A DNA stretch of 5,328 nt, taken from the NCBI GenBank assembly GCA_046760505.1, contig JBHIEG010000069.1, forward strand, positions 1 through 5,328, written 5' to 3'. This stretch comes from CAYFZR01 sp046760505 [NCBI: Candidatus Hydrothermarchaeota archaeon] (GTDB taxonomy: Archaea; CAYFZR01). Each line of letters begins with the position of its first letter. Position 1 is the stretch's first letter. Positions 1-5,328 of the stretch are shown piece by piece. Made by a program: the position numbers and the translations under genes. The notes under the pieces were generated by a model, which was given only the letters and a program-made list of their open reading frames with translations, was not told where the DNA came from and searched no databases.

Positions 1-1526
1 AAAAGCTGAGCATTTCCTAAAATGATGGCCAAAAGATTGTTAAAATCATGAGCCACTCCTGCCGCCATCTCTCCTAAAGCTCTGAGCCTTTCTGCTCGGA
101 TGAGAGTCTTCTCGGTCTTCTTGCGCTCGGTAATGTCTCGTGCCAAATATATGATCCCCTGAATCTTCCCATCATCACCACTCATGACCGAACCTGAAAA
201 CAGCACGGGTATTTTTCTGCCGTCTTTTGACAGGTAGGTTTTCTCTACATTTCGGACAAATCCTCTTTCAGTTAAATTATCATCAGGCTCTGAGTTCTTG
301 AACATCAATATTTCGTCTTCTCCGAATATAGCTCGAATGGACTTCCCCATCAGCTCATTTTCTTGATATCCAAGAAGATCGAGGCTCGCTTGATTGACTG
401 CTTTAATTGTGCCATCGGGGTCAACGATAATAAGGGCGTCGGCCATAGATTTGATGATATTATCGGTATAGTTCTTTGCTTTTTCCAATTCCACCTTAGT
501 CTCGTGTAGCTGTCTTGTCCGCTGCTGAACTCTCGCTTCCAGCTCTTCCCTGGGCAGGAGCACTATTCTCTCCTCCTCCAAAACACCCTTAGGTAAGCTT
601 CTGAGAATATCGAAAAACACTGGTGAGTCTCTATAGGCTTCTCGTGTAGCTCGGTAGCTTTTGGCTAAGAGCTCTTCAGCGTGTTTGGGTGAGGTAACAG
701 CACCGTAGAGCTCCAGCAGTTTCGAGCTAAGCGCTGAGAACATTGTGCAAATCGCTGATATCCTATTTTCTCCGGGTATTCTGCCAATGTCTCTTACCAA
801 GGGCTCAAAATCTATGGTTCCATCTTGCTTAAACTTGCAGCTCTCAAAGAGAATTGGATTATATTCAAAATATTCAAGTAGACTTTCTCTGATGAGCCCT
901 GAAAAAGGCTTTGTCGGTGTTAGAAATTTATTTATCAGAGCCCCATAGGCTCTGATAGCAAGAATATCGTCTCTGAACAAAATCACTTCTTCTTGTTCTT
1001 CTTCACGTTCGACCCCGGATAGGCAGTATGTTCTTGCACCGAGTGTTAGATTTGCAAAGCAAAATCCCCAAATAGCGATGCTGAAAACGCTGTACCAGCA
1101 AAACTCTCCCGATGTGGAGTGCAAAATGTCCAAAAGATATGCTGGAATTCCGCCGAGAACAAGCACAGAAACACCAATTAAATAATGAATTGAACCTGGA
1201 TACTCCCAAGCTATTTTTAGCAATGAACTAGGATAAACCTTCTGGATAGCTTTTCCAGCCAACAAACCCCCATAAATAAGGATACAAAGAGCAATTATCC
1301 ACACAAAGAATACGCTCAGATGCAAACCACTGCCGGGAAAGAAGAGAGTATCCACAACGCCAATCATGCTAATAACAATGAAAAGCATAGCACTAGCTAT
1401 CATGAGGTAATGCTCTCTTGAACCTTTTGTCAGTTTTGCGCTTTGTAGTGAATAATAAGTGAAAATTAGTGCGAAGATGAAGAAAACACTCCCAAGGGAG
1501 TACATGAGGATATCCATCAGACTCAT
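1..1526 (-). CDS. Membrane PAS sensor histidine kinase (NtrB-like), C-terminus cut by window edge
   Basis: The frame is open without stops for 508 codons and runs off the low-coordinate edge. The start ATG at 1526-1524 overlaps the previous stop as ATGA, with GAAGG about 9 nt upstream; Met4 is an alternative start. About five hydrophobic segments are visible (roughly residues 6-26, 40-60, 70-92, 113-134, 142-164). A helical linker of about 160 residues (186-345) follows and ends in a charged coiled coil (REELEARVQQRTRQLHETK, 326-344). A PAS domain comes next (about 352-468: ADALIIVDPDGTIKAVNQ to YLARDITERKK). The H-box GEMAAGVAHDFNNLLAII has the phospho-acceptor His493. The AHDFNN form of the H-box is typical of kinases that pair with NtrC-class regulators, so the activator at 5081-5328 is a plausible partner (inference). 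The ATP-binding domain lies beyond the window. By eye this gene is richer in GC (about 45-50%) than the two genes before it. Confidence 0.95.
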   Translation of the reverse strand, partial: MSLMDILMYSLGSVFFIFALIFTYYSLQSAKLTKGSREHYLMIASAMLFIVISMIGVVDTLFFPGSGLHLSVFFVWIIALCILIYGGLLAGKAIQKVYPSSLLKIAWEYPGSIHYLIGVSVLVLGGIPAYLLDILHSTSGEFCWYSVFSIAIWGFCFANLTLGARTYCLSGVEREEEQEEVILFRDDILAIRAYGALINKFLTPTKPFSGLIRESLLEYFEYNPILFESCKFKQDGTIDFEPLVRDIGRIPGENRISAICTMFSALSSKLLELYGAVTSPKHAEELLAKSYRATREAYRDSPVFFDILRSLPKGVLEEERIVLLPREELEARVQQRTRQLHETKVELEKAKNYTDNIIKSMADALIIVDPDGTIKAVNQASLDLLGYQENELMGKSIRAIFGEDEILMFKNSEPDDNLTERGFVRNVEKTYLSKDGRKIPVLFSGSVMSGDDGKIQGIIYLARDITERKKTEKTLIRAERLRALGEMAAGVAHDFNNLLAIILGNAQL

Positions 1527-3112
1527 TCTGTTCTTACCTTCTCTAGTTCTTTCTCAATGGCTGCGAGCTCCTGTTTCTTAAACATCTCTGTGTTTATTGA
1601 AATCAGTATGGTTGAGTTGTTTTCATTACATAAGTTCCTAAGATCTTTCAACAGAGTTAATGACTTTTGAAACCCGTTTGCAAACTTGATTTGGTCGAAG
1701 CAGTCCAGCAAGACGATGCTTCCGTCAGTTCTCTTTACGAATTCCGATGTCGTTCTATTGAGTTTGACAAAATCTTTAGGGTTTATTGTTCCTTCGGCTT
1801 TTTTAAAGGTCAGCCAAAATACGGAAGCTTTGTCAACATCGTATCTCTCTCTAACCTTTTCTGGATGAAGCTTTGAGATGCAGAGGGACCCAAACCCATA
1901 ATTCAATGCTTCTTTTAGCTTTTTATAAGCCTTGGTCGGCTTTTCTTCTTTAAAGAGATACATTCTTCCAGGTATAAGCTCTTTAAAAATCTTCGGGATC
2001 TTAACCTCTTTAGGCATAGCGTCTAGAATCCCACGTCTCGAAAGAAAATCGCCGTGTATATGCATCATTCTGTCAAACCATTTATCTGCACCATTTTTTG
2101 ATTTTGATTTCAAAATTTTATATGTTTCTACAAATGCATTTGAGAATTCCTGGCATATTTCTTTTGCTTCCGGAATTTCCTTTAAGGTTCTTAAAACGCT
2201 ATCTGTTATCTCACTAATGTCTTCCTTTGCAAACTTCCCAGAATCAAAAACTAATTTTTGGCATTTATTAACATACACAACACCACTCAATCCCATGGCT
2301 TCAACGTATTCATCAAATTTGATGGCACTTACACCTAACTCTTTGCCAGGCATGCAGGCTTGTAATCTGTTTAGGAACTGCAAATAGTATTCTGATAGTC
2401 TGCTCAATGGTTCCACCATCTTGGGAGAAATATCAATCTTTTCTGTGGGAAGTGAAATAGCGTAAGCAATAAGAAGAAACTCAGCAGTTGTTATGATACC
2501 ACCAAATGATGGAGTACTGGGATTTAACTTCAGAATCCAATTTGTTATCCCCATACCTCCGAGGTAGACAGCCCCAATCGCAACTATAAAAAGCCAGAAT
2601 TTCATTCTTAATAAAGATTGTTCAGTTCTTCTGCTTAGAAAGATAAGTGCGATTATTATAGCCCCAGCATATCCGATTGAAAAAACTGAGTACATGATCA
2701 TAAACCACATCTCAAACTCATAAGTCCATCCATAGTACGTCCAAGAAACACTGACACAATCGACAAACAGAATGATGACTGAAAGTAGCAATGCAGGAGT
2801 AATTATCAAGACATACCAATTTTTCAGTTTGCCCAGAGATAGGATTGCAAGAAATATTAAGGGGTTTGCCAATGGACAAAAGAACATTCCAGCTCTAAAG
2901 AAATGCTCGGATAACTTCTCCGTGGGAGCGATCCTATGTAAAAATACGAACAACAACCACGTTGATAAAAATACCCCAAAAATGAAAAAAATTTGATATG
3001 ATAAGATTTTTTTATTTTTTATGTATAAATATATTGTGATTGATAGAGTAGGTAAAACGGCAACCACATATTGAATAGACCATAGAGTTAAATGCCAATC
3101 TGCCATCCTCAT
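1523..3112 (-). CDS. Seven-transmembrane (HisKA_7TM-like) protein with C-terminal DUF835 domain
   Basis: This 529-residue protein has seven hydrophobic segments (about 11-31, 38-58, 78-93, 99-118, 134-159, 172-192, 205-223). Their spacing and the closing AEFLLIAYAISLPTEKIDIS resemble the 7TM sensor module of many histidine kinases. Residues 230-380 are a soluble, mostly helical region. Residues 382-525 match the DUF835 pattern as I know it: GRMYLFKEEKP, a VFWLTF strand, INPKDFVKL, and a Walker-B-like IVLLDCFDQIKFANGF. No P-loop and no H-box are present, so catalysis is not expected; a receptor or scaffold role is inferred. DUF835 is known mainly from archaea, which makes a bacterial copy notable. 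The start overlaps the preceding stop as ATGA (3112-3109), with AAAGGG just upstream; Met3 is an alternative start. The stop overlaps the kinase start in the same way. The gene is AT-rich (about 35% GC in sampled lines). The 7TM call is firm, DUF835 is likely, and the ligand is unknown. Confidence 0.9.
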   Translation of the reverse strand: MRMADWHLTLWSIQYVVAVLPTLSITIYLYIKNKKILSYQIFFIFGVFLSTWLLFVFLHRIAPTEKLSEHFFRAGMFFCPLANPLIFLAILSLGKLKNWYVLIITPALLLSVIILFVDCVSVSWTYYGWTYEFEMWFMIMYSVFSIGYAGAIIIALIFLSRRTEQSLLRMKFWLFIVAIGAVYLGGMGITNWILKLNPSTPSFGGIITTAEFLLIAYAISLPTEKIDISPKMVEPLSRLSEYYLQFLNRLQACMPGKELGVSAIKFDEYVEAMGLSGVVYVNKCQKLVFDSGKFAKEDISEITDSVLRTLKEIPEAKEICQEFSNAFVETYKILKSKSKNGADKWFDRMMHIHGDFLSRRGILDAMPKEVKIPKIFKELIPGRMYLFKEEKPTKAYKKLKEALNYGFGSLCISKLHPEKVRERYDVDKASVFWLTFKKAEGTINPKDFVKLNRTTSEFVKRTDGSIVLLDCFDQIKFANGFQKSLTLLKDLRNLCNENNSTILISINTEMFKKQELAAIEKELEKVRTE

Positions 3113-4725
3113 GCGCCCTTTAACATCTCAACAATTTCCAACCTTTCTGGCGGAATAAGCTTAGGGGGTTTAATCTGTCCCAGAGGAACACCTTCTTTCG
3201 ACTTTTTAATAACGTATCTCATGAATGTGCCTTTTTTCAAATACTCTACCTTTATCACATCTGAAACTTTTTTAATTTTAAAATGGCGTACATAGTGATG
3301 GAAATCTACGTCTATCTCCTTTAAAGAATCAAACACCAATTTTGCTACTTTCTCCTCTGAGTGTTCCCATTCTTTCTCCATTAGGAGGCAAAGGTGCTCA
3401 TTTGGTTCTATCACCTTAACAAAGGCCCATTTATCTGTAGGAGGTAACCCCGCCTTTTTTAGCGCCTCAATAGCAATGGCTTCGGACAGTCTACACCATC
3501 CATATATATCCAATAAGCTGGATTTCCTACTTTCAAACTCAAAAATAGGTAATCCATCATCGCGAAAATCTACAACCTTAAAAAGGTCGCCTATCTGGTA
3601 TCTAATATGCATACTCCCAAAAGGAGATGCTATGAGCCCATAGACTCCCATCTTCTTTAACTCGTCTATTCTACATACCAGTTCCCCATTTTCTGTAAAT
3701 TCAAAATAACCACTTCGTAGATCAGGCATAAGGGATTTTCTCCTGTCTGGGAGTCCCATCATAGGGAAACCAATATCTGTCGTACCGTAGACATTTAAGG
3801 GCTCTCTTCCAAACTGATCTGTGAGGTAATCTCGATAAAGCTCGGTATCGAAGCCACCGGCTCCTACTCCTTTTACAGGCATTACGTCCTTTACTTTCTT
3901 ATAATCACTACCTGTGATTCTTTGGAGGAGCCATCTCAGAAATAATACTAATTTTACTACTCCAAGGTTCATAGATTGATATTGATCCTTGTAAAGTCCC
4001 GCACGGTTTGTAAAATACCTACAAATGAGATGGAAAGATGACGCAATCCCACCTGCAACATCAACGCTTTTTCCTTTCTCAATCATTTTTAGAGTGAGAT
4101 ATATCTTCTTTCTCATATTTGGTATATTATCTGTAACTGATAGAGGAGGAACAAGTCTAAGACCAGCATTAAGAACTGCTCTGTAGAATGGTCCTCCACT
4201 ATATGGAGAAGAAGACATTAGATTGAGTACTGAATCACCTTTTCTTAGTGTTGTCTCACCCCAACTATCGCTACAACATAGGGTTAATATAGCCATAATA
4301 TCTGTAGCCATATTTTTAAAGAAAGTATCACCAAATACAAACCATTTACTTTCTCCGGTAGTACCAGAAGTTTTCATGCAAAAACCATAATCATCTACCA
4401 TCCAACCATCAAGCATAGGACTGGCTTGTCTGCCTATTCTATCGTAGTAATCACAGAGCAGCTCTTTCTTTCCCCTTGGTACAGTTTTTTCCAGCTTCTC
4501 TATTTTCTTGCCAAATTCGTGTAAAATTGGATAATTGTCATAAGTGGTCAGTGGAATATCTTCAAATTTCTCGACTCCCTCGGGACATAGCTGTTTTGCC
4601 ATCTTGGTCTTCTTCCAGCGCTCAAAATACTCTTTCTTCTTCCTCTCATTATACTCTACCTGCTCAGAGAAGCTCTTATCAAAAAATCCACAATATTTCT
4701 TCCAAAGCTCTCTTCCCTCACTCAT
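3109..4725 (-). CDS. GH3/PaaK-like acyl-adenylate-forming enzyme (ANL superfamily)
   Basis: The protein has 538 residues from the preferred start and no transmembrane segments or signal peptide, so it is probably cytoplasmic. Motifs in order: FEDIPLTTYDNYPIL (54-68), as at the N-terminus of PaaK/GH3 proteins; the nucleotide-binding loop KTSGTTGESK (118-127); VYGTTDIGF (312-320), the A5-type motif; YQIGD (376-380), the A7-type motif; ESRKSSLLDIYGWCRLSEAI (398-417); and a C-terminal GTFMRYVIKK...GQIKPPKLI (499-524), like the GH3 ending. The family activates carboxylic acids with ATP, then transfers the acyl group to CoA or an amino acid. The substrate cannot be read from sequence. The start at 4725-4723 follows AAAGGAGG with a 5-nt gap. 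The frame stays open to an ATG at 4881 (52 more codons), but that ATG has no Shine-Dalgarno sequence and the sigma-54 promoter lies downstream of it. A middle option is Met9 of that long form, with GGAG about 9 nt upstream. First gene of the operon. Confidence 0.88.
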   Translation of the reverse strand: MSEGRELWKKYCGFFDKSFSEQVEYNERKKKEYFERWKKTKMAKQLCPEGVEKFEDIPLTTYDNYPILHEFGKKIEKLEKTVPRGKKELLCDYYDRIGRQASPMLDGWMVDDYGFCMKTSGTTGESKWFVFGDTFFKNMATDIMAILTLCCSDSWGETTLRKGDSVLNLMSSSPYSGGPFYRAVLNAGLRLVPPLSVTDNIPNMRKKIYLTLKMIEKGKSVDVAGGIASSFHLICRYFTNRAGLYKDQYQSMNLGVVKLVLFLRWLLQRITGSDYKKVKDVMPVKGVGAGGFDTELYRDYLTDQFGREPLNVYGTTDIGFPMMGLPDRRKSLMPDLRSGYFEFTENGELVCRIDELKKMGVYGLIASPFGSMHIRYQIGDLFKVVDFRDDGLPIFEFESRKSSLLDIYGWCRLSEAIAIEALKKAGLPPTDKWAFVKVIEPNEHLCLLMEKEWEHSEEKVAKLVFDSLKEIDVDFHHYVRHFKIKKVSDVIKVEYLKKGTFMRYVIKKSKEGVPLGQIKPPKLIPPERLEIVEMLKGA

Positions 4726-4730
4726 CTTAT

Positions 4731-4738
4731 CCTCCTTT
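4731..4738 (-). promoter_or_regulatory. Strong Shine-Dalgarno for the GH3-like gene
   Basis: The minus strand reads AAAGGAGG, then ATAAG, then ATG (4725-4723). This is an essentially ideal ribosome binding site at 5-nt spacing. It decides the start codon: the in-frame ATG at 4881 has only GCAAGTTCTCAATAA before it. Confidence 0.85.
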
Positions 4739-4741
4739 CTG

Positions 4742-4760
4742 GTGAACCAAGATGGTTTAC
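4742..4760 (-). other. Small hairpin in the leader just before the ribosome binding site
   Basis: The transcript would read GUAAACCA-UCU-UGGUUCAC, an 8-bp stem with one A-C mismatch and a 3-nt loop. It ends 3 nt before AAAGGAGG. It could protect the mRNA 5' end or affect ribosome access, but it is short and may be chance. Confidence 0.3.
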
Positions 4761-4814
4761 TTTTAGAAGATTTCTCAAGTTTTTTATTCCTGGGGCATCT
4801 CTGGCTTTTATCGG

Positions 4815-4832
4815 CAGCAAGTTTTTTGCCAA
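4815..4832 (-). promoter_or_regulatory. Sigma-54 (-24/-12) promoter of the operon
   Basis: The minus strand reads TTGGCAAAAAACTTGCTG. The GG (4830-4829) and GC (4818-4817) are separated by exactly 10 nt, as sigma-54 requires. Against TTGGCAC-N5-TTGCW the core differs only at the C after TTGGCA. The predicted transcription start is near 4805, giving a leader of about 80 nt before the ATG at 4725. A sigma-54 activator gene directly upstream makes the match more credible. Confidence 0.75.
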
Positions 4833-4899
4833 TCCAAGCTAATAAAGAAAAAGTCATTTCTATTATCTCCAGATGGCTCATTTATTGAGAACTTGCGCG

Positions 4900-4920
4900 A
4901 GGAAAATAAGGAGGTTTCCT
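4900..4920. promoter_or_regulatory. Candidate activator binding site 1 (AGGAAA-N9-TTTCCT dyad)
   Basis: This 21-bp dyad has perfect 6-bp arms and is centred at 4910, about 105 bp upstream of the predicted sigma-54 start site, a usual distance for enhancer sites. It matches the dyad at 5062-5082 at 16 of 21 positions. Assigning it to the neighbouring activator is inference. Confidence 0.4.
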
Positions 4921-4959
4921 GGCCAGAATGACTATACTTTATTTGAGGGTTCCTTTATT

Positions 4960-4979
4960 TAGGTACAAATTTGTACCTA
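4960..4979. promoter_or_regulatory. Perfect 20-bp palindrome, probable operator
   Basis: TAGGTACAAATTTGTACCTA is perfectly self-complementary with no spacer. It lies in the intergenic region about 165 bp upstream of the predicted start site. Such a site suits a homodimeric regulator. It could be the main enhancer site of the NtrC-class activator or the operator of another repressor; I do not recognise the motif. It has no loop or T-tract, so it does not look like a terminator. Confidence 0.55.
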
Positions 4980-4998
4980 TCTTTCGGCTTTAGGTTGG

Positions 4999-5014
4999 AA
5001 AATTGTTCAATTTT
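4999..5014. repeat. AT-rich inverted repeat
   Basis: AAAATTG-TT-CAATTTT has perfect 7-bp arms around a 2-nt spacer. It lies 20 bp from the 20-bp palindrome. It may be a further protein-binding site, but AT-rich dyads arise easily by chance. Confidence 0.3.
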
Positions 5015-5061
5015 GAGCACTAGAGGAACGATGGGGATGGACATTTTTGTACGCCAAGAAG

Positions 5062-5082
5062 AGGAAAACTGGGAATTTTCCT
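5062..5082. promoter_or_regulatory. Candidate activator binding site 2 (AGGAAAA-N7-TTTTCCT dyad)
   Basis: Perfect 7-bp arms are centred at 5072, 162 bp from the similar dyad at 4900-4920 and about 267 bp upstream of the predicted start site. It overlaps the stop codon of the activator gene. On the minus strand it could also act as a weak terminator hairpin, but only CTTCTT follows and the stem is AT-rich, so I favour a binding site or chance. Confidence 0.35.
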
Positions 5083-5328
5083 ATCCTCTTTCAATCCCGT
5101 ACTTTTCCATCTTGTACTTTATAATTCGCCGGGAGATACCCAAGAGTTTAGCCGCTTTGGTCTGGACCCAGTGAGTCTCTTTTAAGGCACCCATGATAAG
5201 CTCTTTTTCTAGCTGGGCTACTCTCTCTTTAAGGGAGAGCCTGTCCGAAGGGAGGATAGGATAAGACAGCTCGGAGATTCTCTGGATCTCTAAAGGGAGA
5301 TCTTGAGCGAGGATAGCATCCCCCTTTC
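5081..5328 (-). CDS. Sigma-54-dependent Fis-family transcriptional activator, C-terminal fragment
   Basis: The last 81 codons and the stop of a gene whose start lies beyond the window. The fragment begins KGDAILAQDLPLEIQ, the segment just after the AAA+ sigma-54 activation domain in NtrC-class regulators. It ends with a Fis-type helix-turn-helix (LKETHWVQTKAAKLLGIS followed by RRIIKYKMEKYGIERG), which binds palindromic enhancer DNA. A preceding charged helix (LKERVAQLEKELIMGAL) is usual for the family. The AAA+ and receiver domains are outside the window, so whether it is a true response regulator cannot be seen. It reads toward the sigma-54 promoter at 4815-4832 and the operon containing an NtrB-like kinase, so it is the obvious candidate activator (inference). 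Base composition resembles the kinase gene rather than the two genes between them. Confidence 0.93.
   Translation of the reverse strand, partial: KGDAILAQDLPLEIQRISELSYPILPSDRLSLKERVAQLEKELIMGALKETHWVQTKAAKLLGISRRIIKYKMEKYGIERG

What the first reader, a model, noticed from the sequence alone, without database searches (positions are those of the whole stretch)
1..5328. Possible self-contained signalling system: sigma-54 activator, adenylating enzyme, 7TM-DUF835 receptor and NtrB-like kinase
A carboxylate-activating enzyme is co-transcribed and translationally coupled with two different membrane proteins of sensor type, behind a sigma-54 promoter next to an NtrC-class activator. An enzyme whose only operon partners are sensors suggests that it makes, conjugates or removes the signal they detect. 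I know of no described system with this exact composition. The link between enzyme product and sensor ligand is inference.
Basis: inference. Interest (0 to 1): 0.65.

Follow-up and report, generated by a model that had tools for sequence, protein, structure and literature searches.

The report
GH3-like enzyme paired with membrane receptor
A bacterial relative of the plant enzymes that join hormones to amino acids sits in an operon with a membrane receptor, and the same pairing recurs in other spirochaete-group genomes, which suggests an undescribed way of making and sensing a small signal molecule.

Summary
Both gene junctions are 4-bp overlaps; a one-mismatch sigma-54 site precedes the enzyme's best start.

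The enzyme is a divergent GH3-family member. Searches by enzyme sequence found its subfamily in nine other genomes, all in draws around loci titled Spirochaetes. In 9 of 9 the next gene, same strand, is a 7TM receptor: seven histidine kinases, two 7TM-DUF835 proteins. Those last two enzymes are 47% identical to the window's. Of 18 distant GH3 loci (16 from the same phylum), 0 have such a neighbour. Five of the nine carry a methyltransferase upstream. Enzyme clades match receptor type (100/100, 92/95).

Most likely the enzyme makes an N-acyl-amino-acid-like signal sensed by the adjacent receptor, as in CqsA/CqsS or PhcB/PhcS. Reaction and ligand are inferred. Main rival: aminolipid synthesis under membrane sensing (compare OlsH/OlsG). 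The sigma-54 site and the extra kinase are not conserved parts. None of eight library searches showed a description.

The parts
5081..5326 (-). C-terminal 81 residues of an NtrC/AtoC-type activator (Fis-type HTH); gene continues beyond the window
   Evidence: Pfam HTH_8 2.9e-15; best NCBIfam AtoC 5.2e-11, below its full-length cutoff
4960..4979 (.). 20-bp perfect palindrome TAGGTACAAATTTGTACCTA; candidate activator site about 140 bp upstream of the -24 element; partial second copy at 5041-5052
   Evidence: a perfect 18-bp palindrome in 8 of 5000 Markov-resampled 355-bp stretches and in 9 of 300 resampled windows; binding is inference
4817..4831 (-). sigma-54-like promoter TGGCAAAAAACTTGC
   Evidence: one mismatch to TGGCACN5TTGC; 5 of 1000 resamplings of the intergenic region as good; not conserved in relatives
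3109..4725 (-). GH3-like adenylate-forming enzyme (538 aa), motifs TSGTTGESK, YGTTD, IRYQIGD, KGTF
   Evidence: searches (sub-cutoff GH3 Pfam; subfamily profile to plant GH3 structures; relatives), trees
1523..3112 (-). 7TM-DUF835 receptor-like protein (529 aa): seven TM-like peaks, about 145-residue middle region, DUF835 (KaiC-like) output domain
   Evidence: Pfam DUF835 2.1e-25; hydropathy; relatives L156, L157 with the same order
3..1526 (-). membrane PAS-HisKA histidine kinase, N-terminal 508 aa (cut by the window)
   Evidence: Pfam PAS_9 1.2e-17, HisKA 0.0069 partial and below cutoff; AtoS-like match 2.4e-29 over residues 346-507

Best explanation
The core is a two-gene synthase-receptor module. 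The GH3-like enzyme uses ATP to adenylate a carboxylic acid (perhaps fatty-acyl) and passes the acyl group to an amine or amino acid. The conjugate, methylated in some lineages, is sensed by the 7TM receptor encoded immediately downstream. The receptor passes the signal on through a swappable output domain: histidine kinase in most relatives, a KaiC-like DUF835 domain in the window and its two closest relatives. In the window a second, membrane-bound PAS-HisKA kinase and an NtrC-type activator may close a positive loop on the operon's sigma-54-like promoter. Shown: the genes, the family, the conserved adjacency, the tight junctions, enzyme clades matching receptor types. Inferred: reaction, substrate, that the product is the ligand, whether it leaves the cell, the feedback loop.
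For: Adjacency: 9 of 9 subfamily loci outside the window have a 7TM receptor as next gene, same strand. Six were known when the pattern was noticed or soon after, all with kinases; of the three found later one has a kinase and two have a 7TM-DUF835 protein, as the window does. Control: 0 of 18 distant GH3 loci have an adjacent gene similar to these receptors; seven neighbours picked by eye there are HAD hydrolases. The two DUF835 relatives: enzymes 47% and receptors 29-32% identical to the window's. Enzyme tree splits by receptor type, 100/100 and 92/95. Gaps -8 to +100 bp, 4-bp overlaps in L120 and L155. The 7TM part is 33-34% identical between window and relatives, the DUF835 part 18-24%. 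7TM profiles of the two receptor types align at E 1.4e-4, against 0.037 and 0.46 for an unrelated 7TM. Precedent: synthase and sensor genes usually lie adjacent (PMC3376566, passages); a methyltransferase and a sensor kinase, in genes thought cotranscribed, make and sense a methyl ester (PMC6989110, passages).
Against: No activity, product or ligand is known. GH3 plus methyltransferase also occurs in an aminolipid operon (OlsH-OlsG, PMC12493201), and PEMT is a lipid methyltransferase family, so the methyltransferase may point to a membrane lipid. L117 and L126 are close copies (kinases 87% identical), so the independent count is nearer eight. Among the groups sampled the subfamily was found only in draws around Spirochaetes-titled loci, and the window's own genome is not held. 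The sigma-54 site is not conserved. Between L156 and L157 the DUF835 part (54%) is not less conserved than the 7TM part (49%), unlike the window comparison. A 7TM domain can sense membrane state rather than a ligand. Adjacency cannot tell synthesis from removal.
Confidence: 0.5

Rival explanations
1. Membrane aminolipid synthesis under feedback: the enzyme makes an N-acyl-amino-acid lipid (as OlsH makes N-acyl-ornithine), a methyltransferase modifies it, and the 7TM receptor monitors membrane composition.
For: OlsH is a GH3-like enzyme in an operon with the N-methyltransferase OlsG and acyltransferase OlsI (PMC12493201). Four loci have a PEMT/ICMT-like membrane methyltransferase upstream (L116 and L118 above the Pfam PEMT cutoff; L117 and L126 by tblastn to the L116 protein) and L155 a class-I methyltransferase.
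Against: Apart from the methyltransferases, no lipid gene was recognised next to the receptor-linked enzymes in the ORF lists, though most upstream neighbours there were not domain-scanned. A canonical GH3 of the same phylum sits near an acyltransferase and a HAD hydrolase instead (L129). The constant partner is the receptor (9 of 9), not the methyltransferase (5 of 9).
Confidence: 0.22
2. Signal removal or tuning: the enzyme conjugates and so inactivates (or activates) an acid signal made elsewhere, and the receptor senses the free or conjugated form.
For: Plant GH3 enzymes act this way on auxin and jasmonate (abstract starts in the listing); same gene adjacency.
Against: No synthase for another signal was recognised in the ORF lists, but this was not searched for systematically. 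Sequence alone cannot separate this from the best explanation.
Confidence: 0.15
3. Catabolic gene under a sensor: the enzyme activates an acid nutrient for breakdown and the receptor detects that nutrient.
For: AMP-forming ligases often serve catabolism (general knowledge); AtoS/AtoC-like neighbours in the window.
Against: The subfamily profile matches GH3 structures far better than PaaK-like CoA ligases (1.5e-13 against 9.2e-5); no breakdown genes were recognised beside the nine loci, where most neighbours were not domain-scanned.
Confidence: 0.08
4. Chance or selfish co-location with no functional link.
For: The full four-gene set is seen only in the window.
Against: 9 of 9 against 0 of 18, overlapping junctions, receptor type matching enzyme clade.
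Confidence: 0.03

Closest known systems
OlsH (Singulisphaera acidiphila GH3-like N-acyl-ornithine synthase; PMC12493201)
   Same: Bacterial, divergent GH3-like enzyme with the three recognisable nucleotide motifs; operon with a methyltransferase
   Different: Makes a membrane lipid precursor; neighbours are OlsG and OlsI, no receptor gene in the operon as described. The OlsH sequence was not in hand, so no direct alignment was made
CqsA/CqsS and LqsA/LqsS (alpha-hydroxyketone quorum sensing; PMC3376566)
   Same: Small-molecule synthase paired with its sensor histidine kinase
   Different: The synthase there is not GH3-like (recalled); the receptor here may carry DUF835 instead of a kinase
PhcB/PhcS (Ralstonia methyl-ester signal; PMC6989110)
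   Same: Methyltransferase and sensor kinase genes in one set thought to be cotranscribed; lipophilic signal
   Different: No GH3 enzyme in the passages seen; PhcB has a SAM-dependent methyltransferase domain and was not compared with the methyltransferases found here
Plant GH3 (GH3.12, JAR1)
   Same: Family membership by profile (E 1.5e-13), adenylation motifs
   Different: Very remote: the window enzyme alone reaches JAR1 only at E 1e-3. Plant enzymes are not in an operon with a membrane receptor (general knowledge)
Archaeal REC-DUF835 (KaiC-like) regulators (PMC5847659, one table passage read)
   Same: DUF835 in a signalling protein
   Different: There fused to receiver/PAS domains; here to a 7TM region

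Membership tests
GH3 adenylate-forming amido synthetases | Profile-level homology across N, middle and C domains | tested here: met
   Window alone is below the three Pfam cutoffs (22.1, 17.3 and 12.8 bits against 23.6); subfamily profile hits plant GH3 at 1.5e-13; relatives L116 and L118 pass all three Pfam GH3 cutoffs
GH3 adenylate-forming amido synthetases | Three nucleotide-binding motifs | tested here: met
   TSGTTGESK, YGTTD, IRYQIGD in the window, compared by eye with the motifs printed in PMC12493201
GH3 adenylate-forming amido synthetases | ATP-dependent amide formation | not testable with these tools
   Needs an enzyme assay
GH3 adenylate-forming amido synthetases | GH3 fold | tested here: inconclusive
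   Single-sequence AlphaFold2 model useless, pLDDT 34.8
Synthase-receptor quorum-sensing pairs (CqsA/CqsS-like) | Conserved adjacency of synthase and membrane sensor | tested here: met
   9 of 9 loci, control 0 of 18
Synthase-receptor quorum-sensing pairs (CqsA/CqsS-like) | Product is the receptor's ligand and acts between cells | not testable with these tools
HisKA_7TM sensor kinases (PF16927) | PF16927 N-terminal 7TM in the adjacent kinases of relatives | tested here: met
   Reported for 4 of 7: L116, L119, L120 and L155; not reported for L117, L118 and L126 at E 0.01, but L117 and L118 align with the others over the 7TM (50% and 60% to L116) and the L126 kinase is 87% identical to that of L117
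HisKA_7TM sensor kinases (PF16927) | PF16927 in the window's DUF835 protein or kinase | tested here: not met
   No Pfam match; profile link only for the DUF835-type 7TM, E 1.4e-4, probability 52; window kinase none
Sigma-54 operon | -24/-12 element upstream | tested here: met
   Sequence match in the window only; not conserved in relatives; no expression data

The most novel reading that the evidence does not exclude
A new class of bacterial small-molecule signalling: GH3 enzymes, chemically the counterpart of plant hormone conjugation, make acyl-amino-acid-type (in some lineages methylated) signals sensed by a linked 7TM receptor whose output domain has been exchanged between histidine kinase and KaiC-like DUF835 during evolution.
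Probability: 0.4. Interest if true: 0.85.

Novelty: new variant of a known kind. Interest (0 to 1): 0.68.

Why it matters
Adjacent synthase-receptor gene pairs are a hallmark of known bacterial communication systems, and their synthases belong to few enzyme families (general knowledge). A GH3-based pair would add a chemical class, give a role to part of the GH3-like proteins spread through bacteria, offer a job for uncharacterised 7TM-DUF835 proteins, and suggest a testable ligand for an orphan receptor family. The conserved pairing makes the test direct: enzyme product against the neighbouring receptor.

Tried and rejected
Enzyme as single-sequence query: no relatives in genome contigs or plasmids. 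DUF835 protein in viral contigs: none. Enzyme alignment in viral contigs: 78 pattern matches, none a relative. The NtrC fragment did not place the window: 26 of 30 genomes matched, best E 2.3e-12 at 45% identity.

Similarity by eye between the middle regions of the DUF835 protein and the window kinase: not supported. Similarity of the window kinase's TM region to relatives' kinases: none. The window's DUF835 7TM as a single sequence against the kinase 7TM profile gave E 0.17; only the three-sequence profile gave 1.4e-4.

Structures: both single-sequence models are too poor (pLDDT 34.8 and 44.6), so no fold search was run.

Anti-phage defence: no PADLOC match for five proteins. Sigma-54 control as a conserved feature: rejected (L116 has a two-mismatch site that 184 of 1000 resamplings equal).

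Negative searches for the close subfamily: 0 of 247 (phylum of G010), 0 of 198 (phylum of G006, whose listed genomes are those, so the same phylum), 0 of 198 (phylum of G027); 1 distant match of 178 (phylum of G009) and 1 distant of 217 (phylum of G003); 3 distant of 50 mixed genomes. The tool itself warns that an empty answer without a known positive shows nothing. Many phyla were not sampled.
Full report
WHAT IS IN THE WINDOW. All the genes described lie on the minus strand. In transcription order: the last 81 residues of an NtrC/AtoC-type activator (HTH_8 2.9e-15; best NCBIfam AtoC); an intergenic stretch with a 20-bp perfect palindrome (4960-4979) and a sigma-54-like element (4831-4817); a 538-residue adenylating enzyme (4725-3109); a 529-residue 7TM-DUF835 protein (3112-1523, DUF835 2.1e-25); and the first 508 residues of a PAS-HisKA membrane kinase (1526-3). 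Both gene junctions are 4-bp overlaps. The best start of the enzyme follows AAAGGAGGATAAG and lies downstream of the sigma-54-like site, so promoter, leader and start are mutually consistent (sequence).

WHAT THE ENZYME IS. Alone it gives only sub-cutoff Pfam GH3 matches and JAR1 at E 1e-3. A profile of seven rows, the window and six relatives' rows, finds plant GH3 structures, led by GH3.12 at E 1.5e-13, and a PaaK-type CoA ligase only at 9.2e-5. The nucleotide motifs TSGTTGESK, YGTTD and IRYQIGD are present and correspond by eye to those printed for plant GH3 and OlsH in PMC12493201 (section 6 read). It is a divergent GH3-like enzyme, so CoA-independent amide formation is the likeliest reaction; this is inference from the family.

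CONSERVED CONTEXT. The window's genome is not held, so relatives were sought in whole genomes by enzyme sequence alone, never by context. Searches (2 of 32 genomes matched; 5 of 120 genomes of the phylum of G011, the genome of a locus titled Spirochaetes bacterium) gave the first relatives. A profile search of 392 genomes of that phylum found 26 genomes with any match, six of them with the close subfamily. A later search of 327 genomes of the class of G098 found six at E 1e-20 or better, three of them new; an order-level search found three of eight, all known. That makes nine loci: L116, L117, L118, L119, L120, L126, L155, L156, L157 (fetched).

In all nine the next gene downstream on the same strand encodes a membrane receptor. 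In seven it is a histidine kinase with an N-terminal 7TM region (HisKA_7TM reported in L116, L119, L120, L155; the other three align with or are near copies of these; GAF and, in most, PAS domains and HisKA or HisKA_2 follow). In two, L156 and L157, it is a 7TM-DUF835 protein of 719 and 723 residues, 29-32% identical to the window's over 406-415 residues and passing the DUF835 cutoff. Those two enzymes are 47% identical to the window's. The first five loci, on which the pattern was noticed, and the sixth (L126) have kinases; of the three found later, one has a kinase and two have the window's receptor type. Gaps range from -8 to +100 bp, with 4-bp overlaps in L120 and L155. Caveats: the L119 enzyme gene reads as two overlapping frames; the L120 gene is cut at a contig end; L117 and L126 come from close species (kinases 87% identical).

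CONTROL. Eighteen loci with distant GH3 genes were examined: the 16 best-scoring of the 20 remaining genomes with matches, plus G032 and G003. None has an adjacent gene similar to the kinases or to the 7TM-DUF835 protein; within three reading frames on either side one kinase was seen, three frames away in L138. Detection used BLAST against the known receptors, so another receptor kind could be missed, and in L132 the GH3 gene is the first on the stretch. Seven adjacent genes, picked by eye and then tested, are HAD hydrolases, and in L129 an acyltransferase gene lies two genes away on the other strand. Canonical GH3 genes of this phylum thus often have a different, lipid-like context.

TREES. 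The receptor-linked subfamily with the window separates from the distant GH3 at 100/100 (18 distant rows, 6 of those 18). Within it the window, L156 and L157 form one group (100/100) and the seven kinase-linked enzymes the other (92/95). Receptor type follows enzyme clade. L119 entered with its N-terminal piece only.

RECEPTORS. Between the window and the two DUF835 relatives the 7TM region is 33-34% identical and the DUF835 region 18-24%; between the two relatives themselves the figures are 49% and 54%, so stronger conservation of the sensor part is not general. The 7TM profiles of the DUF835 type and the kinase type align over 160 columns at E 1.4e-4, probability 52; an unrelated 7TMR-DISM region gives 0.037 and 0.46. 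A common 7TM sensor with exchanged output is plausible, not proven. DUF835 is listed as a KaiC-like (iKaiC) domain in archaeal regulators (one table passage of PMC5847659); that the i stands for inactive is recalled.

METHYLTRANSFERASE. Immediately upstream of the enzyme lies a PEMT/ICMT-like membrane methyltransferase in L116 and L118 (above the PEMT cutoff, below the ICMT cutoff) and, by tblastn to the L116 protein, in L117 and L126, where its frame overlaps the enzyme gene. L155 has a class-I methyltransferase there. The tblastn gave no hit in L119, L120 or L127 (a contig-end stretch of the L120 genome); L120 is cut at a contig end. In L156 (near a contig start), L157 and the window none was noticed in the ORF lists, but no methyltransferase search was made there.

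MECHANISM. Best reading: synthase plus cognate receptor. Enzyme product, methylated in some lineages, binds the 7TM receptor; output goes through kinase or DUF835. In the window the added PAS-HisKA kinase and NtrC-type activator with a sigma-54-like promoter and an upstream palindrome would fit autoinduction, but this arrangement was not found in the relatives and the promoter element is not conserved. Precedents for the arrangement: adjacency of autoinducer synthase and sensor genes (PMC3376566, two passages) and the Phc methyltransferase-kinase system (PMC6989110, passages). The strongest rival is aminolipid synthesis: OlsH (GH3-like) with OlsG (N-methyltransferase) and OlsI in one operon (PMC12493201: abstract, sections 6 and 8, section 9 part 1 and passages).

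LITERATURE. Eight searches: DUF835 (one paper); GH3 with bacteria and acyl acid amido synthetase (58 papers, 20 listed); GH3 auxin-responsive promoter with histidine kinase (seven plant or fungal papers by title); Cqs/Phc/Lqs (one paper); N-acyl amino acid/GH3/quorum sensing/spirochete (three papers); Phc (23 papers, six listed); Cqs (23 papers, six listed); spirochaete quorum sensing with histidine kinase (nine papers, eight listed). None of the listings showed a GH3-receptor pair, and in PMC8895600 on two-component quorum sensing nothing of the kind appeared in the passages seen. The library holds open-licence papers only, and most listed papers were seen only as title and abstract start.

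VERDICT.

Noticed in passing
L129, L131, L132, L135, L139, L141, L143: Canonical GH3 genes in genomes of the same phylum sit next to a HAD-family hydrolase gene (seven tested by Pfam; L136, L137, L140 look alike by eye), and in L129 near an acyltransferase gene: a possible undescribed aminolipid set.
   Followed up: partly
L156:4315-7872 and L157:13980-17698: Convergent to the 7TM-DUF835 gene both relatives keep a 7TMR-DISM histidine kinase and a response regulator with GAF and HD_5 (HD-GYP-like) domains: a possible output towards cyclic-di-GMP.
   Followed up: partly
L116:8881-9459, L118:8333-8920, L117 ending 8750, L126 ending 2634, L155:7125-7838: Methyltransferases of two different Pfam families (PEMT/ICMT-like and class-I) occupy the same place upstream of the enzyme gene.
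   Followed up: partly
window 4960-4979 and 5041-5052: 20-bp perfect palindrome with a degenerate second copy 76 bp away, upstream of the sigma-54-like site.
   Followed up: partly
window 933-957: Inverted repeat with 9-base arms and a 7-base loop inside the kinase gene.
   Followed up: no
L119:8977-10592: Enzyme gene split into two overlapping frames: natural frameshift or assembly error.
   Followed up: no
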